From Roseicyclus persicicus (GTDB lineage Bacteria > Pseudomonadota > Alphaproteobacteria > Rhodobacterales > Rhodobacteraceae): a DNA stretch of 64,000 bases. Position numbers and translations under genes: made by a program. Below, one piece after another: positions 41,208 to 60,090 of this stretch (positions are counted from its first letter, which is position 1; every line of letters starts with the position of its first letter). The notes under the pieces were generated by a model. It was given only the letters and a program-made list of their open reading frames with translations, had not been told where the DNA came from and did not search any database. The DNA lies in assembly GCF_012395815.1 (NCBI RefSeq), contig NZ_JAAZQQ010000006.1, positions 186,001 through 250,000 of the forward strand, given 5' to 3'.

Positions 41208-42416
41208 ATGAGCGGGGCGGCGCAGCCCCGGCTGTCGCGCGCCGAGTTCATCGCCCTGATGGGCATGATCTTCGCCACGGTCGCCTTCTCCATCGACGCG
41301 ATGCTGCCGGCCCTGCCCGAGATCGCGGCCGCGCTGACCCCCGCCGCGCCGAACCTCGCCCAGCTCGTGCTGACGAGCTTCGTGCTCGGCCTCGGCGTCG
41401 GCACGCTGTTCACCGGCCCGCTGTCCGACACCTTCGGCCGCAAGCCGGTGATGCTGGGGGGCGCCGCGCTCTACGTCACCGGCGCGGTGCTGGCCTGGGC
41501 CGCGCCCTCGCTCGAGCTCCTGCTCGCCGCGCGGCTCCTGCAGGGCCTTGGCGCCGCGGGCCCGCGGGTGGTGGCGACCGCGATCATCCGCGACCTCTAT
41601 TCGGGCCGGCAGATGGCGCAGATCGTCAGCTTCGCCATGCTGATCTTCACGATCTTCCCCGCCGTGGCGCCGATGATCGGGGCGGCGATCATCTGGGGCT
41701 TCGGCTGGCGCGCGATCTTCCTCGCCTTCCTTGCCTTCTCGGTCGTCTCGGTCGGCTGGCTGATGCTGCGCCAGCCCGAGACCCTGCCGCCGGACGCGCG
41801 CCGCCCCTTCCGCCTCGCGCCCCTGCGCGCGGCGCTGGCCGAAACCCTGCGGCTGCGGCAGATGCAGCTGTCGATCCTGGTGCAGACGCTGGTCTTCGGC
41901 ATCCTGTTCGGCACCATCTCGTCGATCCAGCCGATCTTCGACGAGACCTACGGCCGCGCCGACAGCTTCCCCTACTGGTTCGCGCTGATCGCGGCGGTGG
42001 CCGCGCCGGCCGCGCCGATCAACGGCACGCTGGTGGTCCGGCTGGGGATGCGGCCGCTGGTGCGGCGCGCGCTGGCGACGCAGATGGCGGGCTCGGTCGC
42101 GGTGGCCACGCTGCTGGCCAAGGGCGCCCTCGGGCCGGCGGAATTCTGGGTGGTGTTCCTGTGGTCCTGCACGGTTTTCGCGCTGGCCGGCTTCACCATC
42201 GGCAACCTCAACGCGCTGGCGCTGGAGCCGCTGGGCCACATCGCCGGCATGGCCGCCTCGGTCATGGGCGCGCTTGCCACGGTGGGGGGCGCGGCGCTCG
42301 GCGCGCTCATCGGCCAGTTCTTCGACGGCACGCCCCTGCCGCTGGTGGCCAGCGCCGCGGCGCTTTCGGCCACCGGCGCGCTGGTGATGCGGTGGATGCC
42401 GCGCGACCCGGCCTGA
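41208..42416 (+). CDS. Multidrug efflux MFS transporter, Bcr/CflA type
   Basis: A 402-residue MFS antiporter with about 12 membrane segments. The N-terminal signature GMIFATVAFSIDAMLPALPEI and the loop motif GPLSDTFGRKPVMLGG are characteristic of Bcr/CflA drug exporters, as is GAAGPRVVATAIIRDL (motif C-like region). The substrate is unknown. Its stop codon is only 5 bp from the first palindrome of array A. Confidence 0.9.
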   Translation: MSGAAQPRLSRAEFIALMGMIFATVAFSIDAMLPALPEIAAALTPAAPNLAQLVLTSFVLGLGVGTLFTGPLSDTFGRKPVMLGGAALYVTGAVLAWAAPSLELLLAARLLQGLGAAGPRVVATAIIRDLYSGRQMAQIVSFAMLIFTIFPAVAPMIGAAIIWGFGWRAIFLAFLAFSVVSVGWLMLRQPETLPPDARRPFRLAPLRAALAETLRLRQMQLSILVQTLVFGILFGTISSIQPIFDETYGRADSFPYWFALIAAVAAPAAPINGTLVVRLGMRPLVRRALATQMAGSVAVATLLAKGALGPAEFWVVFLWSCTVFALAGFTIGNLNALALEPLGHIAGMAASVMGALATVGGAALGALIGQFFDGTPLPLVASAAALSATGALVMRWMPRDPA

Positions 42417-42421
42417 CCCGC

Positions 42422-42511
42422 GCAAGCCTCTTGCAAGAGGCTTGCCCGCGATTTGCAAATCGCGGGGCACCGCCTTGCAAGGCGGTGGCAAGGCTCTTGC
42501 AAGAGCCTTGC
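42422..42511. repeat. TTGCAA palindrome array A (4 units)
   Basis: Four contiguous perfect palindromes: 42422-42445 (24 bp), 42445-42466 (22), 42468-42487 (20), 42488-42511 (24). Each is centred on TTGCAA, and the centres are exactly 22 bp apart (42433/34, 42455/56, 42477/78, 42499/500). Right arms read CAAGAGGCTTGC, CAAATCGCGGG, CAAGGCGGTG and CAAGAGCCTTGC. The array fills the space between the stops of two convergent genes. Confidence 0.97.
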
Positions 42512-42515
42512 GCCC

Positions 42516-45500
42516 TCAGGCCGCCGCCTTGCCCTCGGCCTGCAGCGCGAGGTCGCGGGCGATGGCGAAGGCGCCCTTGATCTTGTCGGCCTCGCTCGCC
42601 CAGTCGTGGCGGACCACGATCTTGTTGTCCTTCACCTTGGCCAGCCCTTTCTGGTTCTGCACGAAGGCCACCAGCCCCGCGGGGTTGGGGAACTTGTCCA
42701 TGTGGAACTGCACCGTCGCCCCCTTCGGCCCGGCATCGAGCCGCGCGATATGGGCGCGCTTGCACATCGCCTTGATCCGCACGACGAGGAGCAGCGTGTT
42801 CACCTCCTTCGGCAGCGACCCGAACCGGTCGATCAGCTCGGCGGCAAAGCCCTCCAACTCCACCTTGGTCTCCAGCTGCGACAGCCGGCGATAGAGCCCC
42901 AGCCGCACGTCGAGGTCCGGCACGTAGTCCTCGGGGATCAGCACCGGAACCCCGAGGTTGATCGTCGGCGACCACTGCCCGTCCTCGGGCAGCCCCTCGG
43001 CCTCGCCCGATCGGATCCGCGCGATCGCCTCCTCCAGCATCGACTGGTACAGCTCGAAGCCCACCTCGCGGACATGCCCCGACTGCTCCTCGCCCACGAT
43101 GTTGCCCGCGCCCCGGATGTCGAGGTCCTGGCTGGCGATGGTGAACCCCGCCCCGAGGCTGTCGAGGCTGCCCAGCACGCGCAGCCGCTTCTCCGCCGCC
43201 GGCGTCAGCTTGGCCCGCGGCTTGGTCGTCAGGTAGGCATAGGCCCGCGTCTTGGCGCGGCCCACGCGGCCCCGGATCTGGTAGAGCTGCGCCAGCCCGA
43301 ACATGTCGGCGCGGTGGATGACCATCGTGTTCGCGGTCGGGATGTCGATGCCGGATTCCACGATGGTCGTGGCCAGCAGCACGTCGTATTTCCCGTCGTA
43401 GAAGGCGTTCATCCGGTCGTCGAGCTCGCCGGCCGCCATCTGGCCATGGGCGACGACGAAGGTCACCTCGGGCACCTGCGCGCGCAGGAATTCCTCGATC
43501 TCGGGCAGGTCCTCGATCCGCGGCACCACGTAGAAGGACTGCCCGCCGCGGTAATGCTCGCGCAGGAGCGCCTCGCGGATCGTCACCGCGTCGAACTCGG
43601 ACACGTAGGTGCGGATCGCCAGCCGGTCGACCGGCGGCGTGCCGATCATCGACAGGTCGCGCACGCCCGACAGCGACATCTGCAGCGTGCGCGGGATCGG
43701 CGTCGCCGACAGGGTCAGGACATGCACGTCCGAGCGCATCTCCTTCAGCCGTTCCTTGTGGGTCACGCCGAAGCGCTGTTCCTCGTCCACGATCAGCAGG
43801 CCCAGCGACTTGAACCGCACCCCCTTGGCCAGCAGCGCATGGGTGCCGATCACGATGTCGACCGACCCGTCCGCCAGCCCCGCCCGCGTCTCGTTGGCCT
43901 GTTTCTGGGGCACGAAACGGCTCAGCTGCCGGACCACCACGGGAAAGCCGCGGAAGCGGTCGGCGAAGGTCTTGGCGTGCTGGCGCGCGAGCAGCGTGGT
44001 CGGCGCGATCACGGCCACCTGCAGCCCCTGCGCCGCCGCGACGAAGGCCGCGCGCATGGCGACCTCGGTCTTGCCGAAGCCCACGTCGCCCACCACCAGC
44101 CGGTCCATCGGCCGGCCCACCTCGAGGTCGGTCAGCACGTCGGCGATGGCCGCCAGCTGGTCGTCGGTCTCCTCGTAGGGAAACCGCGCGCAGAAGGCCT
44201 CCCACATGTCGCCGGGGGGTTCGAGGATGGGCGCCGCGCGCAGTTCCCGCTCGGCCGCGATGCGGATCAGCTTGTCCGCGATCTGGCGCAGCCGTTCCTT
44301 CAGCCGCGCCTTCTTGGCCTGCCACGCGCCCCCGCCGAGCTTGTCGAGCAGCCCCTCGTCATGGCCGTAGCGGCTGAGAAGCTCGATGTTCTCGACCGGC
44401 AGGTACAGCCGGTCGCCGCCCGCATACTCCAGCAACAGGCACTCGTGCGGCGCGCCCATCGCGGTGACGGTCTCGAGGCCCTTGTAGCGCCCGACCCCGT
44501 GGTCGACATGGACAACGAGGTCGCCCGGTGACAGCGACTGCGCCTCGGTCAGGTAGTTCTCGGCGCGCTTGGTCTTGCGCTTGGGCCGGATCAGCCGGTC
44601 GCCCAGCACGTCCTGCTCCGAGATCACGGTCAGCCCGCCGCCGGTGAACCCCTCCTCCAGCGGCCAGACCGCCAGCGACAGCGTCCCCTTGCCGCCGATG
44701 TCGCGCGCGTCGTCGATCAGCCGGGCATCGGCGAGGCCCTGGTCCTCCAGCAGCCCGTGCAGCCGTTCCCGCGCGCCCTCGGACCAGGACGCGATGATCA
44801 CGGCGCTGTCTTCGCGCATTGCCTTCACGTGGTCGGCCAAGGCCCCGAACAGGCTCAGGTTCTCGTTCTGGCGCTCGGGCGCGAAGCTGCGCCCGATGCG
44901 CCCGCCCGCGTTGATGACGCCCGGCCCCGGCGCGGCGGCGATGGGCGAGAACTGCACCACGCGGTGATCGGCCGTGGCGCGGCCCCAGGCGGCATCGTCG
45001 AGATACAGCAGCTGCGGCGGCACCGGCTTGTAGACCGTGTCCATCCGCCCCTTCTGGGTCAGGGCGGTCTTGCGGGTGTCGTACTGGTCGGCGATCGCGT
45101 CCCACCGCGACAGGCGCTGCGGTGTCGCCTGGTCGTCCAGCGTGATCCGCGCGCCGGGCAGGTAGTCGAACAGCGTCTCCAGCCGCTCGTGGAAGAACGG
45201 CAGCCAGTGCTCCACCCCCTGGTGCTTGCGGCCCGCGCTGACCGCTTCATACAGCGGGTCGTCGGTGCCCGCCGCGCCGAATTCGATGCGGTAGTTCTGG
45301 CGGAACCGGGTGATCGACGCCTCGTCGAGGATCACCTCGGACACAGGCGCCAGCTCCACCCGGGTCAGCTTCTCGGTGGTGCGCTGGCTGACCGGGTCGA
45401 AGCGCCGCGCGCCGTCCAGCACGTCACCGAACAGGTCGAGCCGCACCGGCCCGCTCTCGCCCGGCGGCCAGACGTCGATGATGCCGCCGCGCACCGCGTA

Positions 45501-45968
45501 GTCGCCGGGTTCCGTCACCGTGGGCGCCTGCACGAAGCCCATGCGCACCAGGAAATCCTTGAGCCCCGCCTCGTCGACCTGCCCGCCCACCGTGGCGACG
45601 AAGGCCGACCGGCGCAGCAGGTCGCGCGCGGGCACGTATTGCGTGGCGGCGTTCAGCGTCGTCAGCAGGACGAAGGGCCCGGTCACGCCCGCCGCCAGCC
45701 CCGCGAGCGTCGCCATGCGCATGGCCGAGATCTCGGGGTTGGGCGACACGCGGTCGTAGGACAGGCAATCCCAGCCCGGGAAGGTCAGGACCGGCACGGT
45801 CGGGTCGAAGAAGGCCAGCGCGCGGGCCATCGCGGCCAGCCGCTTGTCGTCGCGGGCGACATGCACCACGGGCACGCCGCCGCCCTGCGCCAGTTCCTTG
45901 AGCACCAGCGTGGCGTCGAAGCCCTCGGGCGCGCCCGAGGCGAGGATGTGGGTGGGCGTCTGGACCAT
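42516..45968 (-). CDS. mfd: Transcription-repair coupling factor
   Basis: A 1150-residue ATP-dependent translocase that removes stalled RNA polymerase and recruits UvrA. The domains in order are: a UvrB-like N-terminal module (about 1-450), the CarD-like polymerase-interaction domain (LSPGDLVVHVDHGVGRYKGL near 480), the RecG-like helicase core with Walker A VGDVGFGKTEVAMR and DEEQ box IVDEEQRFGVTHKE, and the C-terminal TRCF domain. ATG 45968 fits the family start; the frame is open to 46004. Confidence 0.97.
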   Translation of the reverse strand: MVQTPTHILASGAPEGFDATLVLKELAQGGGVPVVHVARDDKRLAAMARALAFFDPTVPVLTFPGWDCLSYDRVSPNPEISAMRMATLAGLAAGVTGPFVLLTTLNAATQYVPARDLLRRSAFVATVGGQVDEAGLKDFLVRMGFVQAPTVTEPGDYAVRGGIIDVWPPGESGPVRLDLFGDVLDGARRFDPVSQRTTEKLTRVELAPVSEVILDEASITRFRQNYRIEFGAAGTDDPLYEAVSAGRKHQGVEHWLPFFHERLETLFDYLPGARITLDDQATPQRLSRWDAIADQYDTRKTALTQKGRMDTVYKPVPPQLLYLDDAAWGRATADHRVVQFSPIAAAPGPGVINAGGRIGRSFAPERQNENLSLFGALADHVKAMREDSAVIIASWSEGARERLHGLLEDQGLADARLIDDARDIGGKGTLSLAVWPLEEGFTGGGLTVISEQDVLGDRLIRPKRKTKRAENYLTEAQSLSPGDLVVHVDHGVGRYKGLETVTAMGAPHECLLLEYAGGDRLYLPVENIELLSRYGHDEGLLDKLGGGAWQAKKARLKERLRQIADKLIRIAAERELRAAPILEPPGDMWEAFCARFPYEETDDQLAAIADVLTDLEVGRPMDRLVVGDVGFGKTEVAMRAAFVAAAQGLQVAVIAPTTLLARQHAKTFADRFRGFPVVVRQLSRFVPQKQANETRAGLADGSVDIVIGTHALLAKGVRFKSLGLLIVDEEQRFGVTHKERLKEMRSDVHVLTLSATPIPRTLQMSLSGVRDLSMIGTPPVDRLAIRTYVSEFDAVTIREALLREHYRGGQSFYVVPRIEDLPEIEEFLRAQVPEVTFVVAHGQMAAGELDDRMNAFYDGKYDVLLATTIVESGIDIPTANTMVIHRADMFGLAQLYQIRGRVGRAKTRAYAYLTTKPRAKLTPAAEKRLRVLGSLDSLGAGFTIASQDLDIRGAGNIVGEEQSGHVREVGFELYQSMLEEAIARIRSGEAEGLPEDGQWSPTINLGVPVLIPEDYVPDLDVRLGLYRRLSQLETKVELEGFAAELIDRFGSLPKEVNTLLLVVRIKAMCKRAHIARLDAGPKGATVQFHMDKFPNPAGLVAFVQNQKGLAKVKDNKIVVRHDWASEADKIKGAFAIARDLALQAEGKAAA

Positions 45969-46008
45969 GGCCGCGTGACCTACGCCGCGGGGGCCCGGTG
46001 TCAAGACA

Positions 46009-46527
46009 CTAGCGCAGCGGGGTGAAGGTGACGTTCGTGTACATGCCCCAGAAGGCGGTGACGAAGATGAACACGATTCCCATGCCCTGCACCATCAGCC
46101 GGTGGTTGCGCAGCCGGATCTCCAGCCGCTCGAAGCCGCTGTCGTGCAGCCGGCGCGCGGTGTGCACGGTCAGCGCCGTCACCAGGATCAGCGGCATGAG
46201 GAGCAGGATCACGGCCTGCGCGAATTCCACCCGGTAGCCCCAGCCCAGCACGGCCAGCGAGGACAGCACGAAGGCCGAGGCCGCGACGAAGCCCGTGCCC
46301 GACAGGTCCGCGAAGCCCAGGATGCGGCGGCTGTTGATCTCGGCCAGCGCGTAGAGGTCGCGCAGGCTTTCGGCGTCGCCGCGGCGGGCGCGCTGGACCA
46401 GATGATAGGGGATGCCCAGCACCCAGTGCGACAGGGTCGACCACAGGATGGCGAGCACGATCCAGTACCACAGGTTCGAGAACGACCTGAAATCGATCAC
46501 CTCTGTGACGAGATCGAAGAAATCCAA
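46009..46527 (-). CDS. Membrane protein of the type labelled 'component of SufBCD complex'
   Basis: A 172-residue membrane protein with about four hydrophobic segments, starting (L/M)DFFDLVTEVIDFRSFSNLWYWIVLAILWS. This matches a Rhodobacterales-specific family conventionally labelled 'component of SufBCD complex'; no suf genes are near, and I know of no function shown for it. The C-terminus (RNHRLMVQGMGIVFIFVTAFWGMYTNV) is highly conserved in that family. The start appears to be TTG at 46527 with no good ribosome site, so the exact N-terminus is uncertain. Confidence 0.75.
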   Translation of the reverse strand: MDFFDLVTEVIDFRSFSNLWYWIVLAILWSTLSHWVLGIPYHLVQRARRGDAESLRDLYALAEINSRRILGFADLSGTGFVAASAFVLSSLAVLGWGYRVEFAQAVILLLMPLILVTALTVHTARRLHDSGFERLEIRLRNHRLMVQGMGIVFIFVTAFWGMYTNVTFTPLR

Positions 46528-46693
46528 GATGGGCCGCCCGACTGCTCCGGTTTCGTGGCGGGCACCCTAGCGGCGGGGTGCGGGGGTTTCCAGCCCAGAA
46601 GCGCACCCGCGCGCCGCGGCCATGGGGCGCGGCCCGACCGGCCCCCGGGCGGCCCCTGGCGGTCGGGGAAACACGGCCCTGCGCCGTCCTCCG

Positions 46694-46807
46694 GGCAAGC
46701 CGGGACACGTCCGCCCCATGCCCCCCGGCAAGCCGGGACACGCCCCCCGTTGTCGTCCCGGCAAGCCGGGACACGCCCCCCAGTTGTCATCCCGGCAAGC
46801 CGGGACA
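46694..46807 (+). repeat. Four tandem CCGGCAAGCCGGG hairpin repeats
   Basis: GGCAAGCCGGGACA occurs at 46694, 46727, 46760 and 46794, a period of 33-34 bp. Each is preceded by C-rich sequence, so that CCCGGC-AA-GCCGGG forms a short hairpin (the first copy has CCGGGCAAGCCGGG). The third and fourth copies share GTTGTC(G/A)TCCCGGCAAG. The block lies 72 bp upstream of hemB in a 352-bp gap. Confidence 0.9.
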
Positions 46808-46879
46808 ACCTGCGCCCTTGTCCTTGGCCGCCCCCCATGTCACCGCTATCCCCCGAGAGACGACACGAAAGACCCCGCC

Positions 46880-47872
46880 ATGCCCCAGGCCCCCTTTCCC
46901 ATGACCCGCCACCGCCGCGTCCGCGCCAGCGCCGCGCTGCGCAACCTGGTGCGGGAGAACGAGCTCAGCGTGAACGACCTGATCTGGCCGGTCTTCGTGC
47001 GCGACGGGCAGGGCATCGAGGAACCCGTGGCCTCCATGCCGGGCGTGGTGCGGCGCAGCGTCGACAGGATCGTCGAGGCGGCGCGCGAGGCGGCCTCGCT
47101 CGGCATCCCGGCGATCTGCCTGTTTCCCTACACCGACCCCGCGCTGAAGACCGAGCTCTGCGAAGAGGCGTGGAACCCCGACAACCTGTCGAACCGCGCG
47201 ATCAAGGCGATCCGCGACGCCGGCATCGAGATCGCGATCATGACCGACATCGCGCTCGACCCCTACAACATCAACGGCCACGACGGGATCGTCCGCGACG
47301 GCGTGATCGTGAACGACGAAACCGTCGAGGCGCTGGTGAAGATGGCGCTGGCGCAGGCCGAGGCGGGTGCCGACATCCTCGGCCCGTCCGACATGATGGA
47401 CGGCCGCATCGGCGCGATCCGGGCGGCGCTGGAGGAGAACGGCCACTCCAACGTGACGATCATGTCCTACGCGGCCAAGTTCGCCAGCGCCTTCTACGGG
47501 CCGTTCCGCGACGCGGTGGGCGCGTCCGGCGCGCTCAAGGGCGACAAGTTCACCTACCAGATCGACCCGGCCAACCGGCTGGCCGCGCTCCGTTGCGTCG
47601 AACGCGACCTGATGGAAGGCGCCGACATGGTGATGGTCAAGCCCGGCCTGCCCTACCTCGACATGGTGCGCGAGGTGAAGGACCGCTTCGGCGCGCCGAC
47701 CTACGCCTACCAGGTCAGCGGCGAATACGCGATGATCGAGGCCGCCGCCGCCAATGGCTGGATCCAGGGCGAAAAGGTGATGCTGGAAAGCCTGATGTGC
47801 TTCCGCCGGGCGGGCTGCGACGGGGTGCTGACCTATTTCGCGCCGCGCGTCGCCAGGATCCTCAACGGGTAG
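46880..47872 (+). CDS. hemB: Delta-aminolevulinic acid dehydratase (porphobilinogen synthase)
   Basis: A 330-residue enzyme joining two 5-aminolevulinates to porphobilinogen for heme and bacteriochlorophyll. Schiff-base lysines are Lys200 in SYAAKFASAFYGPFRD and Lys254 in MVMVKPGLPYLD. The metal segment reads TDIALDPYNINGHDG, the Asp-rich form without the zinc cysteines, as in the Rhodobacter enzyme. Standard housekeeping gene; the preceding intergenic region carries the hairpin repeats. Confidence 0.96.
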   Translation: MPQAPFPMTRHRRVRASAALRNLVRENELSVNDLIWPVFVRDGQGIEEPVASMPGVVRRSVDRIVEAAREAASLGIPAICLFPYTDPALKTELCEEAWNPDNLSNRAIKAIRDAGIEIAIMTDIALDPYNINGHDGIVRDGVIVNDETVEALVKMALAQAEAGADILGPSDMMDGRIGAIRAALEENGHSNVTIMSYAAKFASAFYGPFRDAVGASGALKGDKFTYQIDPANRLAALRCVERDLMEGADMVMVKPGLPYLDMVREVKDRFGAPTYAYQVSGEYAMIEAAAANGWIQGEKVMLESLMCFRRAGCDGVLTYFAPRVARILNG

Positions 47873-48007
47873 CGGGCGGATCGGCGGCAGACCGCCAAGT
47901 GTGGTGCTTTGCCGGGTGACAGGGCGGCCGGATCGGCGTATCCTGTGACATAATCCGCGGGCGTGAAACGACCCGCCCCCCTGAGGCAACCCGGCATGAG
48001 GCCCCCG

Positions 48008-48565
48008 ATGAGCAAGCTCACCCGTCGTCATTTCGTGATCACCGGCACGTCCCTGCCGCTGCTCGCCGCCTGCGGCAACGGCATCAACTCCGGCGGTGCC
48101 GCCCGGATCGACGGCCGCGTCGATTCCGCGATCGAGTTCATGTACACCGAGGTGCCCGGCACCCGCGACCTGGCCATGGACGCCGCCGGCATCCTCGTGA
48201 TGCCGCTGGTGACCGAGGCGGGCTTCGGCTTCGGCGGCTCCTACGGGCGCGGCGCGCTGCGCATCAACGGGGTCACGGTGGACTACTACTCGGCCGTGTC
48301 CGGCACCTTCGGCCTGCAGATCGGTGCGCAGCAATACGCCCACACCCTGTTCTTCATGACCGAGGCCGCGCTGCGCGAGTTCCGCACCTCGCCCGGCTGG
48401 GCGGTGGGCGGCGACGTGCGCTACGCGATCAACGACCGCGGCGCCAACCTGGGCGCGGACACCACCACCCTGTCGGACCCGGTGATCGCTGTGATCTACG
48501 GCCAGGCCGGCCTGATCGTGGGCGCCACGCTGGACGGCACGCGCTACACCCGCATCATTCCCTGA
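48008..48565 (+). CDS. SYLF/YSC84-domain lipoprotein
   Basis: A 185-residue exported lipoprotein. The N-terminus has a twin-arginine-like RRHFVITG followed by a lipobox LLAAC with Cys22. The mature part has AAGILVMPLVTEAGFGFGGSYGRGAL, YSAVSGTFGLQIGAQQYAHTLFFMTEAALREF and a C-terminal GQAGLIVGATLDGTRYTRI, typical of the lipid-binding SYLF (YSC84) domain. The role in bacteria is not established. ATG 48008 is chosen because the signal sequence starts there. Confidence 0.85.
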   Translation: MSKLTRRHFVITGTSLPLLAACGNGINSGGAARIDGRVDSAIEFMYTEVPGTRDLAMDAAGILVMPLVTEAGFGFGGSYGRGALRINGVTVDYYSAVSGTFGLQIGAQQYAHTLFFMTEAALREFRTSPGWAVGGDVRYAINDRGANLGADTTTLSDPVIAVIYGQAGLIVGATLDGTRYTRIIP

Positions 48566-48650
48566 CCGGGGCGCCGACCCCACGGCAGAGGTTTGCATTC
48601 CCGCGGGCCTGCGGTAGCTGTGCCCCGGTGAATCGCGCACCCGAGGGACC

Positions 48651-51134
48651 ATGGCTCTCCTGCTCCGCTGGCTCGTCCGACTGGTCTCGGTCGCCGTCGC
48701 CCTGACGGTTGCCGTGGTGCTGGCGGCCTGGTGGATCGGGTCGCGCTCGATCCCCGACTACGACGCCGAGTGGACGGTGCCGGGGCTGGCCGCGCCGGTC
48801 GAGATCGTGCGCAACACCGCCGCGGTGCCGCACATCTTCGGGCAGACCGACGCCGACGTGTTCTACGGCCTCGGCGTCGCCCATGCGCAGGACCGGCTGT
48901 GGCAGATGCTGATGATGCGGCGCACCGCGCAGGGGCAGCTGTCGGAGCTGTTCGGCGAGCCGACGCTGCAGATCGACGACCTGATCCGGCGGCTCGACGT
49001 CTACCAGCTCGCCACCGACTCGGTCGCGGTGCTGGAGCCCGAGACGCTGGCCGCGCTCGAGGCCTACGCGGCGGGGGTGAACGCGTGGCTCCGGCTGGTG
49101 GGCGAGGAGGCGCTGGGGCGCGGCGCGCCGGAACTGTTCCTGTTCGAGCCCGATATCGCGCCCTGGCGGCCCGCCGACAGCGTCGCGGTGACCTTCATGA
49201 TGGCGCTGCAGGTGGCGTTCCACCACGAGGACGAGGTGCTGCGCGCGCGCCTGTCGCTGGCTCTCGACGATCCCGACCGGCTGCGCGACCTGATGCCCGA
49301 CGCGCCGGGCGCGGGCGTGGCCGAGATCGCCGGGCTGACCGACTATCGCGGCCTGTTCGACAGCGCCCTGCCCCGCTTTGCCGAGACCGGGACGGCCCCG
49401 CGCCACCCGCTGCACCCCAACGTGCTGGGCCGGACGGGCGCCGGGGCCTCCAACGTCTTCGCCGCCACCCCGGCCCGCGCGGCCGCCTCCGGGGCGCTCC
49501 TGGCCAATGACCCGCACCTGGGCCTGACCGCGCCCTCGATCTGGTATCTCGCGCGGCTGGAGCTGGAAACCGGCGGGGTGATCGGCGCCACGATCCCGGG
49601 GATGCCGGTGATCCTCGCGGGGCGGTCCGAGCGGCTGGCCTGGGGGATCACCTCGGCCTACCTCGACGACATCGACCTCTACGTCGAGGAGCTGAACCCC
49701 GACGACGTCACCCAGTACCGCACGCCCGACGGCTGGGCCGAGTTCCGCACCGACCGCCGGGTGATCGAGGTCGCCGGAGCCGAGCCCGTCACCATCACCC
49801 GCCGCTGGACCGAGAACGGCCCGGTGATCCCCGGCAGCCACTACGGCTTCGGCACCGTCACCCCGCCCGGTCATGTCATGGCGATGGCCTGGACCGCGCT
49901 GACCGACGAGAACACCTCGATCCAGACCGGGCTGCGCCTTATGCGGGCGGGCACGATCGAGGAGGCGCTGGAGGCGGGCGAGGATTTCGTGGCCCCGGCG
50001 CAGAACCTGATGCTGGCCTCGGCCGACGGGCGCATCGCGATGCAGGTGATCGGCCACATGCCCTGGCGCATGACGGCGCACCAGACGCAGGCGCGGATGC
50101 CCTCACCCGGCTGGATCGACACCAACCGCTGGCAGGGCGTGACGCAGTATTTCGCCAATCCCACCTTCCTCGACCCCGAAAGCGGCATCCTGGGCAACAC
50201 CAACAACAAGACGGTGGACCGCGACTTCCCGCTGCACGTGTCCTTCGCCTGGGGCGACACCCAGCGCATCACCCGGCTGACCCGGCTGATGGAGGCGCGC
50301 GACGTCCACACCCGCGACAGCTTCATCGAGGCGCAGCTCGACACCGTGTCGGCGGCGGCGCGCAACATCCTGCCGCTGGTGGCGCGCGACCTGTGGTTCA
50401 CCGGCGAGACCGCCGCGGCCGGCACGCCCGAGCGGCGCCGGCAGCGGGCGCTGGCGCTGCTCGCCGAGTGGAACGGCGAGATGAACGAGCACCTGCCGGA
50501 ACCGCTGATCTACGCCGCCTGGATGCGCGAGCTGCAGCAGCGCCTGATCCGCGACGAGATCGGCCCGCTCGCCGACGAGTTCCAGTCGGTCGAGCCGATC
50601 TTCCTCGAGCGCGTCTTCCGCGACATCGGCGGCGCGAGCGCCTGGTGCGACGTCGCCCCCTCGACCGCCGAGGAGACCTGCACCGACATCGCGCGGCTTG
50701 CGCTCGACGACGCGCTGCAGGCGCTGGAGGAACGCTACGGCAGCGACCTGGAAAGCTGGCGCTGGGGCGCGGCGCACGAGGCCCGCCACGACCACCCGGT
50801 GCTGGGTCAGACGCGGCTGTTCTCGTGGCTGGTGAACATCCGCCAGCCGACCTCGGGCGGCGACTTCACCCTGAACCGCGGTGCGACGCCGGGCACGATG
50901 CCCGACCCGTTCCTCAACATCCACGCGGCGGGCTACCGCGGCGTCTACGACTTCGCCGACCCCGACAGCTCGGTCTTCGTGATCGCCACGGGGCAGTCGG
51001 GCAATCCCCTGTCGCGCCACTACGACGACCTGGGCGAGCTGTGGCGGCGGGGCGACTACATCCCGATGTCGCTCGACCCCGAGCTGGCGCGGGCCGGCAA
51101 CATCGGCGTCACGGTCCTGACCCCGCAGGAGTGA
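48651..51134 (+). CDS. Penicillin acylase family protein (Ntn hydrolase)
   Basis: An 827-residue precursor of an N-terminal-nucleophile amidohydrolase. A membrane/signal segment is at 7-30, an alpha subunit region runs to about 266, and the autoproteolytic site precedes nucleophile Ser267 in GAGASNVF. NDPHLGLTAPSIWYLA (beta subunit), NRGATPGTMPDPFLNI and ATGQSGNPLSRHYDD near the end are family motifs. Members hydrolyse acyl amides, including acyl-homoserine lactones in some bacteria; the substrate here is unknown. The stop is 4 bp before palindrome array B. Confidence 0.92.
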   Translation: MALLLRWLVRLVSVAVALTVAVVLAAWWIGSRSIPDYDAEWTVPGLAAPVEIVRNTAAVPHIFGQTDADVFYGLGVAHAQDRLWQMLMMRRTAQGQLSELFGEPTLQIDDLIRRLDVYQLATDSVAVLEPETLAALEAYAAGVNAWLRLVGEEALGRGAPELFLFEPDIAPWRPADSVAVTFMMALQVAFHHEDEVLRARLSLALDDPDRLRDLMPDAPGAGVAEIAGLTDYRGLFDSALPRFAETGTAPRHPLHPNVLGRTGAGASNVFAATPARAAASGALLANDPHLGLTAPSIWYLARLELETGGVIGATIPGMPVILAGRSERLAWGITSAYLDDIDLYVEELNPDDVTQYRTPDGWAEFRTDRRVIEVAGAEPVTITRRWTENGPVIPGSHYGFGTVTPPGHVMAMAWTALTDENTSIQTGLRLMRAGTIEEALEAGEDFVAPAQNLMLASADGRIAMQVIGHMPWRMTAHQTQARMPSPGWIDTNRWQGVTQYFANPTFLDPESGILGNTNNKTVDRDFPLHVSFAWGDTQRITRLTRLMEARDVHTRDSFIEAQLDTVSAAARNILPLVARDLWFTGETAAAGTPERRRQRALALLAEWNGEMNEHLPEPLIYAAWMRELQQRLIRDEIGPLADEFQSVEPIFLERVFRDIGGASAWCDVAPSTAEETCTDIARLALDDALQALEERYGSDLESWRWGAAHEARHDHPVLGQTRLFSWLVNIRQPTSGGDFTLNRGATPGTMPDPFLNIHAAGYRGVYDFADPDSSVFVIATGQSGNPLSRHYDDLGELWRRGDYIPMSLDPELARAGNIGVTVLTPQE

Positions 51135-51138
51135 GGCA

Positions 51139-51253
51139 CGGCAGATCCTTGCAAGGATCTGCCGGAAGGACCTTGCAAGGTCCTTCCGCCGGTCTTGCAA
51201 GACCGGCCCCAGCCTTTTGCAAAAGGCTGGCAAAAGCCTTGCAAGGCTTTTGC
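51139..51253. repeat. TTGCAA palindrome array B (5 units)
   Basis: Five contiguous or slightly overlapping perfect palindromes: 51139-51164 (26 bp), 51163-51188 (26), 51188-51207 (20), 51209-51230 (22), 51230-51253 (24). All are centred on TTGCAA, with centres 24, 22, 22 and 22 bp apart. Right arms read CAAGGATCTGCCG, CAAGGTCCTTCCG, CAAGACCGGC, CAAAAGGCTGG and CAAGGCTTTTGC. The array lies between two genes of the same direction. Confidence 0.97.
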
Positions 51254-51311
51254 ACCCCACCGCCAGCTGCGCTATCAGCACCCCCGAGACATCCCTCGCC
51301 CGAGGCCGCCC

Positions 51312-52190
51312 ATGCCCCTTCTCTACGACAGCCCCGCCGCCTGGGAGGCGGCCCCCGACAAGCGCCTCGCCGTGTTCGGCATGTCGGGCCTCGGCAAAAC
51401 CCGGCTGGCCGCGCTCCTGCGCGGGGCGGGCGACTGGTATCACTACTCGATCGACTACCGCATCGGCACCGCCTACATGGGCGAGCACATCAACGACAAC
51501 CTCAAGCGGCAGGCGATGCAGGTGCCGTTCCTCGCGGAACTGCTCAGGTCGGATTCGATCTACATCTCGTCCAACATCTCCTTCGGCAACCTCGCGCCGC
51601 TCTCGACCTTCCTCGGCAAGCCCGGCGATCCGGCCAGGGGCGGCCTGCCCTTCGACGAATACATGCGCCGGCAGGCCCTGCACCGCCGGGCCGAGATCAA
51701 CGCGCTTCTGGATACACCCTCCTTCATCGCGCGGGCCCGCGACCTCTACGGCTACCCGCATTTCATCGCCGACACCGGCGGTTCGATCTGCGAGGTGGTG
51801 GACCCCGACGACCCGGCCGACGAGGTGCTGCGCACCCTGTCGGGCACCTGCCTGATGGTCTGGATCGAGGGCCCCGAAAGCCACACCGCCGAGCTGATCC
51901 GCCGCTTCGAGCGCGACCCCAAGCCGATGTACTACAAGCCCGAGTTCCTGCTGCCCCTGTGGCAGGCCTGGCTCGACGCGCAGGGCGTGACCGCCGAGAC
52001 CGCCGACCCCGACGCCTTCATCCGCCACGCCTACCGCCGCGCCATGGCGCACCGGGCGCCGCTCTATGCCGCGATGGCGCGGAACTGGGGCGTGACCGTC
52101 ACCGCGGCCGAGGTCGAGGCGGTGCGCGACGCGGCCGATGCCGTCGCCATGGTCGCCGCCGCCCTTGGCAGGGCCGCCGCGCGCCCCTAA
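51312..52190 (+). CDS. P-loop ATPase/kinase-like protein of unknown function
   Basis: A 292-residue cytoplasmic protein with Walker A GMSGLGKT at 23-30 directly after a short N-terminal strand (KRLAVFG). Conserved-looking segments follow: WYHYSIDYRIGTAYMGEHIND (43-63), DSIYISSNISFGNLAPLSTFLG and YPHFIADTGGSICEV. I see no clear helicase or kinase subfamily signature; the small-molecule kinase-like P-loop start is the strongest lead. It is 30 bp upstream of metA and may be co-transcribed with it. Confidence 0.7.
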   Translation: MPLLYDSPAAWEAAPDKRLAVFGMSGLGKTRLAALLRGAGDWYHYSIDYRIGTAYMGEHINDNLKRQAMQVPFLAELLRSDSIYISSNISFGNLAPLSTFLGKPGDPARGGLPFDEYMRRQALHRRAEINALLDTPSFIARARDLYGYPHFIADTGGSICEVVDPDDPADEVLRTLSGTCLMVWIEGPESHTAELIRRFERDPKPMYYKPEFLLPLWQAWLDAQGVTAETADPDAFIRHAYRRAMAHRAPLYAAMARNWGVTVTAAEVEAVRDAADAVAMVAAALGRAAARP

Positions 52191-55882: not shown

Positions 55883-56497
55883 ATGCGCAATCTCCTTCTC
55901 GCCGCCACTTTGACCGTCGCCTCGGCGACGACAGCAATCGCTGGGGGCGTAGCTCCGACCACCACTCCGCCGCCCGCCGTCACGCCGGCGGCGCCGGTCT
56001 ACAACTGGGGCGGCTTCTACGCCGGTCTGAGCTACGGCGAGGTGTCGGGCGGCATCACCAGGAACTCCGCGGTTCCCACCCAGCTTCCGGATCTGGTCGG
56101 CACGGGCGCCGGCGGTGGCTTCGTCGGCTACAACTGGCAGACGGCCAACAACCTCGTCTTCGGTGGCGAACTGAACATCACGTCGTTCGACACCCCCTAC
56201 GTGGGCTTCCCGATTTCCATCCAGAGCGATAGCACCGAACTGCGCGGCCGCGTCGGGATGGCGCTGAACCGGGCGCTGTTCTACGGATTCGTCGGCTATG
56301 CGGAAACCGAGTTAAGCAATGGCGGGACAATCTTCGAGATGGACGGGGTGGTCTACGGCCTCGGCGTCGACGTGATGATCACCGAACGCTTCTTCGGCGG
56401 CATCGAGGTGGCTCGCCGGGACGTCTCGGGCGCGAATGGATTTGAACTGGACGTCGAAATCGATACGGTTGCGCTGCGGCTCGGCGTGCGCTTCTAG
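55883..56497 (+). CDS. Outer-membrane beta-barrel protein, paralog 3
   Basis: A 204-residue exported barrel with signal peptide (about 1-20), a Thr/Pro linker (TTTPPPAVTPAAP), then YNWGGFYAGLSYGEVSG and a C-terminal LGVRF. It shares linker style and the WGGFY entry with the barrels at 17131-17745 and 17959-18564. The 207 bp upstream include an AT-richer stretch (55755-55860) likely to hold its promoter. It sits between the TetR gene and that gene's duplicated tail. The function is unknown. Confidence 0.83.
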   Translation: MRNLLLAATLTVASATTAIAGGVAPTTTPPPAVTPAAPVYNWGGFYAGLSYGEVSGGITRNSAVPTQLPDLVGTGAGGGFVGYNWQTANNLVFGGELNITSFDTPYVGFPISIQSDSTELRGRVGMALNRALFYGFVGYAETELSNGGTIFEMDGVVYGLGVDVMITERFFGGIEVARRDVSGANGFELDVEIDTVALRLGVRF

Positions 56498-56525
56498 GCT
56501 GCGCCAAGGAGACGGATTGATCGGG

Positions 56526-56555
56526 CGGGCGGCTTACGGCCGCCCGTTTCCTTTT
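56526..56555 (+). terminator. Rho-independent terminator of the barrel gene
   Basis: CGGGCGGC-TTACG-GCCGCCCG (56526-56546) followed by TTTCCTTTT, 29 bp after the stop at 56497. Confidence 0.85.
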
Positions 56556-56583
56556 CGCAAGGACGTGTCAGAGCCGGCCGTGC

Positions 56584-58889: not shown

Positions 58890-59543
58890 ATGTCGTTTCA
58901 GATCGTCCTCCGTGCCGGCCTGATCGCCGGGCTGACCGCCCTGCCCGTCGCCGCCCTCGCGCAGACCGCGACCGAGGCGCCGGTGACCGAGGAGGATGGC
59001 CTGCCCGTGGGTCAGACGCCGGTCGGCCAGACCTATGTCGCCGAGACCCACGGCGACTGGGAGATCCGCTGCATCCGCGCCGAGGAAGGCCAGCCCGAAC
59101 CCTGCCAGCTGTACCAGCTGCTGGTCGACCAGAACGGCGGCCCGGTGGCCGAATTCAACGTGTTCGACCTGCCCGACGAGGGTCAGGTGATCGCGGGCGC
59201 CACCATCGTGACGCCGCTCGACACGCTGCTGACGCCGGGCATCCGGGTGCGGGTGGATGACGGCCAGTGGTCGGAGTATCCCTTCGCCTTCTGCCAGCAG
59301 ATCGGCTGCTTTGCCCGGCTCGGCCTGACCGCGGCGAACGTCGACGCGCTGCGCGCGGGCGGCAGCGCCAACGTCGCGCTGGTGCCGCTGCCGGCGCCCG
59401 ACCAGGTGGTGCAGCTGACCGCCTCGCTCAGCGGCTTCACCGCCGGTTTCGCGGCGCTCGAGGCCCGCAACGAGGCCGCCATCGCCCTGTTCGAGCAGCT
59501 GCGCGCGGCGCAGGGCGCGGGCGAAGGCGCCGCCAGCGACTGA
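58890..59543 (+). CDS. Invasion-associated locus B (IalB) family protein
   Basis: A 217-residue exported protein with signal peptide (about 1-24, ending ALAQT). An IalB domain follows: [35 protein letters not shown], then [18 protein letters not shown], with paired cysteines likely forming disulfides. The family is periplasmic and named from Bartonella; its role in free-living bacteria is unknown. A clear terminator follows. Confidence 0.88.
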
Positions 59544-59572
59544 CCGGCCGCACCTCGCCGTCCCGGACAACA

Positions 59573-59605
59573 GGCCCGCACCGTCCCCCGGCGCGGGCCT
59601 TTTCC
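59573..59605 (+). terminator. Rho-independent terminator of the IalB-family gene
   Basis: GGCCCGC (59573-59579) pairs with GCGGGCC (59593-59599), followed by TTTTCCTT, 29 bp after the stop. Confidence 0.7.
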
Positions 59606-59625
59606 TTCCGCGCGGGCCCGGCCCG

Positions 59626-60090
59626 TCACGCCCCGCCGGGGAACCCCGCCGCCGCCATCCGGCGCAGCCGCGCCTGCCGGTGCCGGTAGAACACCCGCGC
59701 GAAGCCCGCCACCAGCGGCGTCAGCCACCCCGCCTCGATGCGGATGGCGTCGGTGTAGCGGCTGCCGTCGCCCTCGGGCAGCACGGTGATGCGGTGGTCC
59801 CAGACCCGCGCCAGCCCGCCATGCCCCGCGTCGTGGAGCGCGAAGCCGCCCGGCGGGGGCGCGGGGAAACTGACCGAGATGACCTGCCGGCCCAGCGGCA
59901 GCACGCCGAACAGCCGCATCGTGACCAGATGGTCGCCGGCGGCCCAGACCTCGGGAAAGCGCGGCGGATCGACCGGCCGGATCTCCAGCAGCGGGCGCGA
60001 CACCTGCACCAGCGTCGCGGGGCGGCGCAGCGCGGCCGCCACCGCGGCGGGCGGCGCGGCGAGGTGCGTGGCGAGGCGGAGGTCGGCCAT
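59626..60090 (-). CDS. SRPBCC-fold protein
   Basis: A 154-residue protein of the START/SRPBCC (polyketide cyclase-like) fold: MADLRLATHLAAPPAAVAAAL start, central WAAGDHLVTMRLFGVLPLGRQVISV, and C-terminal ARVFYRHRQARLRRM helix. Such domains bind hydrophobic ligands. It follows the ketoacyl synthase gene by 80 bp in the same direction, so a lipid-related ligand is possible; no specific function is recognised. Confidence 0.7.
   Translation of the reverse strand: MADLRLATHLAAPPAAVAAALRRPATLVQVSRPLLEIRPVDPPRFPEVWAAGDHLVTMRLFGVLPLGRQVISVSFPAPPPGGFALHDAGHGGLARVWDHRITVLPEGDGSRYTDAIRIEAGWLTPLVAGFARVFYRHRQARLRRMAAAGFPGGA

What the first reader, a model, noticed from the sequence alone, without database searches (positions are those of the whole stretch)
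51139..51253. Second phased TTGCAA palindrome array, locus B, with unrelated arms
Five perfect palindromes (26, 26, 20, 22, 24 bp) with centres 24, 22, 22 and 22 bp apart, starting 4 bp after a stop codon, between genes of the same direction. Across both arrays all nine centres are TTGCAA (seven CTTGCAAG, two TTTGCAAA), while arms share little. So the conserved features are the centre, the spacing and the symmetry, not the sequence. This points to a structural or protein-phasing element that can expand or change unit by unit. Positions just after stop codons suggest a 3'-end role or a tolerated insertion site.
Basis: partly seen in the sequence, partly recalled or inferred. Interest (0 to 1): 0.85.

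Follow-up and report, generated by a model that had tools for sequence, protein, structure and literature searches.

The report
Tandem hairpin arrays at gene ends
Just after the ends of dozens of genes, one genus of bacteria carries rows of mostly three to five small hairpins whose stems change in matched pairs and tend not to resemble their neighbours, which looks like a two-way stop or end-cap for RNA copies of the genes.

Summary
The window's genome (genus of Roseicyclus) has about 31 TTGCAA arrays; I collected 93 from seven genomes. None lies between divergent genes (53 convergent, 37 co-directional, 3 unresolved); the facing stop codon is a median 8 bp away. In orthologous arrays stem pairs 4-9 from the centre change together (47 paired against 4 broken, G000-G003), with a twofold excess of A-T/G-C transitions over nearby non-coding DNA, as for a single-strand stem. 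Units of one array repeat each other less than chance, and their grouping favours self-folding in the three genomes tested. TTGCAA is not essential: a second class (centre CTGCAG/CTCGAG, 23-bp pitch) occurs in 10 of 13 genomes of the genus and stands at two orthologous gaps where others have TTGCAA arrays. What is conserved is a row of separately folding hairpins at a 3' end. Best reading: a bidirectional, U-tract-free tandem-hairpin terminator or 3'-end barrier. No RNA data show termination. Near-absence of G-U pairs and lack of a strand bias in mismatches are the main results against a pure RNA reading.

The parts
51139..51164 (.). array B unit 1, perfect 26-bp palindrome, centre CTTGCAAG
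51163..51188 (.). array B unit 2, perfect 26-bp palindrome, centre CTTGCAAG (shares 2 bp with unit 1)
51188..51207 (.). array B unit 3, perfect 20-bp palindrome, centre CTTGCAAG
51209..51230 (.). array B unit 4, perfect 22-bp palindrome, centre TTTGCAAA
51230..51253 (.). array B unit 5, perfect 24-bp palindrome, centre CTTGCAAG
48651..51134 (+). upstream gene, penicillin amidase family, whose stop codon precedes array B by 4 bp
   Evidence: Pfam PF01804 E 1.2e-201
51312..52190 (+). downstream gene, no Pfam match at E 0.001; starts 58 bp after array B
51250..51278 (+). promoter-like pair TTGCAC-17-TATCAG directly after and partly inside unit 5; similar letters in several array-less relatives. 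Resemblance by eye only
   Evidence: sequence; inference
42422..42445 (.). array A unit 1, perfect 24-bp palindrome
42445..42466 (.). array A unit 2, perfect 22-bp palindrome, centre TTTGCAAA
42468..42487 (.). array A unit 3, perfect 20-bp palindrome
42488..42511 (.). array A unit 4, perfect 24-bp palindrome
41208..42416 (+). left gene of the convergent pair around array A (MFS transporter); array starts 5 bp after its stop
42516..46004 (-). right gene of the convergent pair around array A (domains of Mfd, transcription-repair coupling factor); array ends 4 bp before its stop codon

Best explanation
The array is one copy of a genus-specific family of 3'-end elements: two to five short hairpins in a row, placed directly after stop codons and most often in the gap between two convergent genes. 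Transcribed from either side it gives the same kind of row of strong hairpins, because each unit is its own reverse complement. I think it works as a bidirectional boundary: the row of hairpins forms behind RNA polymerase and promotes release without a U-tract, or leaves a protected 3' end. What selection keeps is pairing in each stem (about six pairs beyond the centre), a fixed loop within one class, and stems different enough within an array that each unit tends to fold on itself rather than with a neighbour. Shown here: position, paired evolution, mutual difference of units, exchange with a second class at the same gene ends. Inferred: that it is transcribed, that it stops polymerase, that it protects RNA.
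For: Position: 93 distinct arrays, 53 convergent, 37 co-directional, 0 divergent, 3 unresolved; 120 of 145 facing stop codons within 0-20 bp. Median 8 bp to the facing stop, 59 bp to the next start (94 records, one duplicate). In G000 0 of 31 are divergent where 60 of 235 gaps of 20 bp or more in a 400-kb sample are, P about 1e-4. Paired change at positions 4-9, paired against broken in one genome, relaxed units: G000-G003 47:4 of 324 cells, G000-G011 52:3 of 318, G000-G004 24:0 of 156 (strict units 47:3, 46:2, 24:0). Switch type: A-T/G-C transitions 32 of 47 against 104 of 299 nearby non-coding substitutions, P 2e-5; for G011 31 of 46 against 41 of 142, P 8e-6; these two share a branch and are not independent. 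Mutual difference: identical units within an array 1 against 5.8 expected (G000), 0 against 3.3 (G003), 0 against 4.3 (G011). Predicted self-folding of native arrays of three or more units (28, 21 and 19 arrays) exceeds all 150 permutations of units in each of these three genomes; four copies of one unit would not fold separately. Exchange: a class II array at the orthologous gap in G002 (G000, G003, G011 and G004 have class I) and in G005 (G000 has class I). Array B folds at -79.5 kcal/mol as five separate hairpins, z -9.1. No T-run terminator in any of 28 array gaps, against 10 of 44 other convergent gaps; convergent arrays alone 0 of 17, P 0.049 (some of the 44 hold class II arrays).
Against: No hairpin plus T-run was found in the array gaps, and no RNA data were available. 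G-U pairs are almost absent: 2 of 834 stem pairs in co-directional arrays at positions 4-9 (1 of 278 at positions 8-9, the part least shaped by detection), whereas Bacillus cereus terminators hold 4.0% G-U and switch mostly through it (PMC5381666, abstract and passages). Mismatches at positions 10-12 show no preference for G-U over A-C: 17 and 20 in co-directional arrays, 19 and 39 in convergent ones with each half assigned to the nearer gene. Array A as a whole is predicted to fold with units 1 and 4 paired to each other, not as four separate hairpins; 43 of 341 units do not self-fold in the array minimum. Array-less relatives do without: 10 of 11 resolved orthologous gaps of B and at least 9 of 11 of A have no TTGCAA array, several of the latter being 3-34 bp (gap ends extrapolated from BLAST). 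The mutual-difference test could partly reflect copies of one ancestral four-unit array.
Confidence: 0.5

Rival explanations
1. The hairpins protect the 3' end or insulate translation after the stop codon (like REP/BIME stabilisers or the ribosome termination structure) but do not stop polymerase.
For: Same position data; arrays begin a median 8 bp after the stop, close to the reported ribosome-termination-structure position in E. coli (minimum 5 nt after the stop, PMC7518266 passages). No T-run.
Against: T-run terminators absent from all 28 array gaps suggests arrays stand in for them, though the convergent contrast is weak (P 0.049). Filling of convergent gaps fits a two-way stop better than a translation insulator (inference).
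Confidence: 0.2
2. The perfection is made by mutation, not selection: dispersed repeats whose arms are corrected to each other by template switching in replication, tolerated after stop codons because nothing there is harmed.
For: Unpaired stem cells are very rare (10 of 2034 at positions 4-9). Some orthologous units differ by 4-6 pairs at once. Arrays share unit orders at unrelated loci. Template switching can create and maintain stems (PMC8794818, abstract).
Against: Does not by itself predict the transition bias of switches, mutual difference and self-folding grouping of units, a fixed loop, or replacement by another class at the same gap. Broken states are relatively commoner in close pairs (paired:broken G004-G011 0:2, G003-G004 2:2, G003-G011 9:6), as stepwise change predicts, though a delay of correction would give the same.
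Confidence: 0.15
3. A DNA-level device: a row of cruciform-prone palindromes that buffers torsion where polymerases meet.
For: Convergent placement; AT-rich centres in GC-rich DNA; symmetry on both strands, no G-U preference among mismatches.
Against: Transition bias of switches is not expected for double-strand symmetry. Class II central dinucleotides are non-palindromic in 10 of 77 units. Stems of about 10 bp are short for cruciforms (recalled).
Confidence: 0.08
4. A protein-phasing array: a dimeric DNA-binding protein sits on each TTGCAA.
For: Centre TTGCAA nearly invariant within class I; fairly regular pitch.
Against: Arms change in matched pairs, pitch slips, other centres at the same gene ends.
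Confidence: 0.05

Closest known systems
Clustered (tandem) hairpin intrinsic terminators without obligatory U-trail (Gupta and Pal 2021, PMC8355165; abstract, outline and passages seen)
   Same: Two or more adjacent hairpins close after the stop codon; a section heading states that poly A/U trails are not necessary; a passage expects more clusters in GC-rich genomes.
   Different: Here perfect self-complementary units, mostly four (there two-hairpin clusters are commonest), nearly fixed loop per class, matched-pair evolution, units mutually different; termination not measured.
REP/BIME elements (GTAG and CGTC families, PMC3733652; passages seen)
   Same: Short dispersed palindromes, mostly between convergent and co-directional genes, downstream of coding regions; complementary stem changes noted.
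   Different: No Y1 transposase (PF01797) in 13 of 13 genomes; stems not conserved; rows of mostly 3-5 perfect dyads. GTAG/CGTC tags were not looked for by any search.
Bidirectional intrinsic terminators and their compensatory evolution (Bacillus cereus, PMC5381666; abstract and passages seen)
   Same: Stem pairs switch together; A-U/G-C switches dominate (79% there; 32 of 47 here); shared by convergent genes.
   Different: No T-run found, near-zero G-U, several stems in a row.
Ribosome termination structure (PMC7518266; abstract and passages seen)
   Same: Stable RNA structure right after stop codons.
   Different: That is a general folding signal; this is a defined repeat family with unit architecture.

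Membership tests
Canonical intrinsic terminator | GC-rich hairpin after the stop codon | tested here: met
Canonical intrinsic terminator | T-run directly after the hairpin | tested here: not met
   0 of 28 array gaps of G000 with a home-made hairpin+T-run scan
Canonical intrinsic terminator | transcripts end there | not testable with these tools
   no RNA data held
Tandem/cluster hairpin terminator (PMC8355165) | two or more hairpins less than 15 bases apart, starting within about 80 bases of the stop | tested here: met
   120 of 145 facing stops within 0-20 bp, pitch mostly 22-23 bp; rows of four or five end beyond 80 bases
Tandem/cluster hairpin terminator (PMC8355165) | termination shown by RNA-seq | not testable with these tools
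   no RNA data held
REP/BIME | conserved stem sequence repeated across the genome | tested here: not met
   51 distinct half-arms (positions 4-9) in 114 units of G000, although some recur, the commonest 14 times
REP/BIME | extragenic, at 3' ends, rarely between divergent genes | tested here: met
REP/BIME | RAYT-type transposase (PF01797) in the genome | tested here: not met
   0 of 13 genomes, 5 of 14 control genomes rang; not all REPs have one in the same genome (recalled)
REP/BIME | GTAG or CGTC tag at one end | not tested
   -
DNA-binding-protein site array | conservation independent of pairing between arms | tested here: not met
Rfam families | match over gathering score | tested here: not met
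   window 42000-52000: one match, a plant miRNA family over array A at 32.7 bits, gathering 100

The most novel reading that the evidence does not exclude
A modular, fast-evolving class of two-way transcript boundaries in which the loop is fixed within a class, each stem may take many sequences, and selection keeps the stems of one array mutually non-pairing, so that whole units and whole classes can be exchanged at a gene end without loss of function. That would be selection against misfolding between neighbouring hairpins, visible in sequence alone.
Probability: 0.35. Interest if true: 0.72.

Novelty: new variant of a known kind. Interest (0 to 1): 0.6.

Why it matters
It gives a natural series of about ninety related arrays, many with orthologues, in which the role of hairpin number, loop and stem in U-tract-free termination could be tested by simple reporter swaps. 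It also offers a system to separate selection from template switching as the cause of perfect stems, an open question for structured RNA.

Tried and rejected
Rejected: chance. Single isolated units: none with a TTGCAA centre and half-arm of 7 in 400 kb of G000, stretches chosen away from known arrays. Known RNA family. RAYT mobility. Viral origin: 0 matches of the strict three-unit pattern in viral contigs. Spread through the family by sequence: class I 0 true of 392 other genera, one genome each, with one non-palindromic chance hit in G322; class II 0 of 197 other genera. By architecture: no array in 293 kb from other genera (20 handles, several of them short contigs).

RNA-strand test by G-U against A-C gave no G-U preference: reported as evidence against. 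Papers: 10 searches listed no paper whose title or abstract start describes these arrays; the library lacks most subscription journals.

Limits: genes were called by my own codon-score script. Strict array detection needs a perfect half-arm of 7, so stem counts at positions 4-7 are perfect by construction; one search repeats them with relaxed units (12 added to 337), which still asks for 5 of 6 centre bases and 3 of 6 stem pairs. A first relaxed look outside 58 arrays found 4 imperfect neighbours. Two class I distances of -68 and -70 and some large ones, and one class II array called inside a gene, are probably gene-calling errors. Orthologous comparisons share branches. G003, G011 and G004 arrays are those that listings and BLAST rows showed, not a complete census. 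One search failed on a missing file and on an off-by-one; both were redone. One search was spoiled by runs of N and redone as with N counted as unpaired.

Full report
WHAT IS THERE. Array B (51139-51253) is five perfect palindromes, as described, and begins 4 bp after the stop codon of a penicillin amidase gene. Array A (42422-42511) is four palindromes that fill the 99-bp gap between a convergent transporter gene and mfd, 5 and 4 bp from the two stop codons. These nine are the only perfect palindromes of 20 bp or more in the window.

NOT TWO BUT DOZENS. The window's own genome (G000, 3.71 Mb) has 86 TTGCAA pairs at this spacing, control 0; the 31 arrays that I collected account for 83 of them if all their steps fall in the pattern's range. 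The genus is that of Roseicyclus: equal contig lengths tie G011 to Roseicyclus sp. Amp-Y-6, G003 to HKCCSP123, G004 to MAG McBI.24 and G001 to MAG ERR2206770_bin.7. Class I arrays abound in 4 of 13 genomes of the genus (G000 70 CTTGCAAG pairs; G003, G004, G011 37 each), G001 has 2 pairs, 8 have none. In the family, one genome per genus, 0 of 392 other genera have true ones. The contigs UBA8790 and SDUM158016 bring the collected set to seven genomes.

WHERE THEY SIT. 93 distinct arrays (94 records; one G001 array was held twice): 53 convergent, 37 co-directional, none divergent, 3 unresolved; 60 have four units, 22 three, 8 two, 3 five. 120 of 145 facing stop codons lie within 0-20 bp; the median is 8 bp, against 59 bp to the next start. 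In a 400-kb sample of G000 60 of 235 gaps of 20 bp or more are divergent, so 0 of 31 is unlikely by chance (P about 1e-4). None of 28 array gaps has a hairpin with T-run. Of other convergent gaps 5 of 11 in the same loci and 5 of 33 in the sample do, class II gaps included; the contrast for convergent gaps alone is weak (0 of 17 against 10 of 44, P 0.049).

WHAT EVOLVES. In 70 reciprocal orthologous array pairs the units mostly keep order and symmetry while stems change. Strict detection makes positions 4-7 perfect by construction, so I recounted with relaxed units. At positions 4-9 paired changes against pairs broken in one genome are 47:4 (G000-G003), 52:3 (G000-G011), 24:0 (G000-G004), 9:6 (G003-G011), 2:2 (G003-G004), 0:2 (G004-G011); at positions 8-9 alone 12:3, 16:2, 7:0, 4:4, 1:2, 0:2. 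At position 10 the constraint fades (strict units, G000-G003: 8 paired, 8 one-sided, 1 broken on both sides). Locus A shows it plainly: unit 4 has CTTGCAAG in G000 and TTTGCAAA in G011 and G004, both halves changed. At locus B, G003 has four units, one with the centre changed to TTTCAA. Whole units are sometimes replaced (4-6 pairs).

RNA OR DNA. For single-strand stems: of paired switches 68% and 67% are A-T/G-C transitions (32 of 47; 31 of 46), against 35% and 29% of nearby non-coding substitutions (strict units); in B. cereus terminators it is 79% (PMC5381666). Against a simple RNA reading: G-U pairs hardly occur now (2 of 834 co-directional stem cells; B. cereus 4.0%), and mismatches at positions 10-12 do not prefer G-U over A-C (17 to 20 co-directional, 19 to 39 convergent). 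Two-way use would explain the lack of G-U for convergent arrays, not for co-directional ones; correction by template switching (PMC8794818, abstract) could add to it.

UNITS AVOID EACH OTHER. The same half-arm twice in an array occurs 1, 0 and 0 times, against 5.8, 3.3 and 4.3 expected in G000, G003 and G011 (P 0.012, 0.027, 0.006). With the real units of each array of three or more units (28, 21, 19 arrays; a fixed two-base linker), the predicted chance that each unit folds on itself is 0.74, 0.80 and 0.78, higher than all 150 permutations in each genome (means 0.62, 0.63, 0.60). G004, with 13 arrays, was not tested. Four equal units would pair with each other instead. Not all arrays obey: array A's predicted fold pairs unit 1 with unit 4, and 298 of 341 units self-fold in the array minimum. 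Shared descent of arrays with a canonical unit order could account for part of this.

A SECOND CLASS. A search for tandem palindromes whatever their centre found in 400 kb of G000 four more arrays, with arms such as GAAAAC and centres CTGCAG or CTCGAG at 23 bp, and none in three random controls; a looser scan adds a 29-bp-pitch pair on CGTACG. Class II occurs in 10 of 13 genomes of the genus, including six that lack class I, and in 0 of 197 other genera sampled. Of 29 class II arrays read, 16 are convergent, 12 co-directional, 1 was called inside a gene; 36 of 44 facing stops are within 12 bp. Its central dinucleotide is not palindromic in 10 of 77 units, as expected of a loop. At the gap of G000 L144 four genomes have class I and G002 has class II. 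At the gap of L142 G000 has class I and G005 class II. At L130, G011 and G003 share one flank with G000 and have class II. These are the only such cases among the class II loci read; the other class II loci matched no class I flank. Further pairs centred on TTCGAA and CGTACG sit between convergent genes in G006.

MECHANISM. I infer a two-way boundary: a row of hairpins in the nascent RNA of either convergent gene that promotes release without a U-tract, as proposed for hairpin clusters (PMC8355165; abstract, outline and passages), or that caps the 3' end. The promoter-like TTGCAC-17-TATCAG right after array B fits a boundary between transcription units (resemblance only). Shown: position, paired evolution, mutual difference, exchange of classes. 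Not shown: transcription, termination, protection. At the orthologous gaps most relatives lack an array (10 of 11 resolved for B; for A two of twelve have one, nine do not, one was not resolved), so the element is not needed at a given gene end.

VERDICT. Real, genome-wide and under pairing constraint; works like a tandem-hairpin terminator; membership unproved because the function cannot be measured here and a U-tract is lacking. New variant of a known kind.

Noticed in passing
L025, L029, L034, L039 and other Bacteroidaceae loci: Rows of TCCTTGCAAGGA at an exact 22-bp pitch in Bacteroidaceae MAGs, mostly not palindromic beyond 12 bp: a different kind of array with the same core and pitch.
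   Followed up: no
G168 (another genus), L270: 32 copies of TTCGTACGAA-N16-TTCGTACGAA (spacer length as in the ten places listed), several with CTTGCAAG between the two: a dispersed palindrome element.
   Followed up: no
orthologous gap of array B in G011 and G012: Unrelated DNA, gaps of about 686 and 1188 bp, stands in place of the array.
   Followed up: no
orthologous gap of array B in G006: Two inverted repeats GGTGCGCCTNAAGGCGCACC, perhaps a further palindrome family.
   Followed up: no
G000 contigs C2 and C4: No class I array listed on C2 or C4 (468 kb) although a class II pair is on C4; C4 may be another replicon.
   Followed up: no
window 56497-56560 and 59543-59626: Sequences that look by eye like ordinary hairpin plus T-run terminators, so the genome seems to use both kinds of gene end.
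   Followed up: partly
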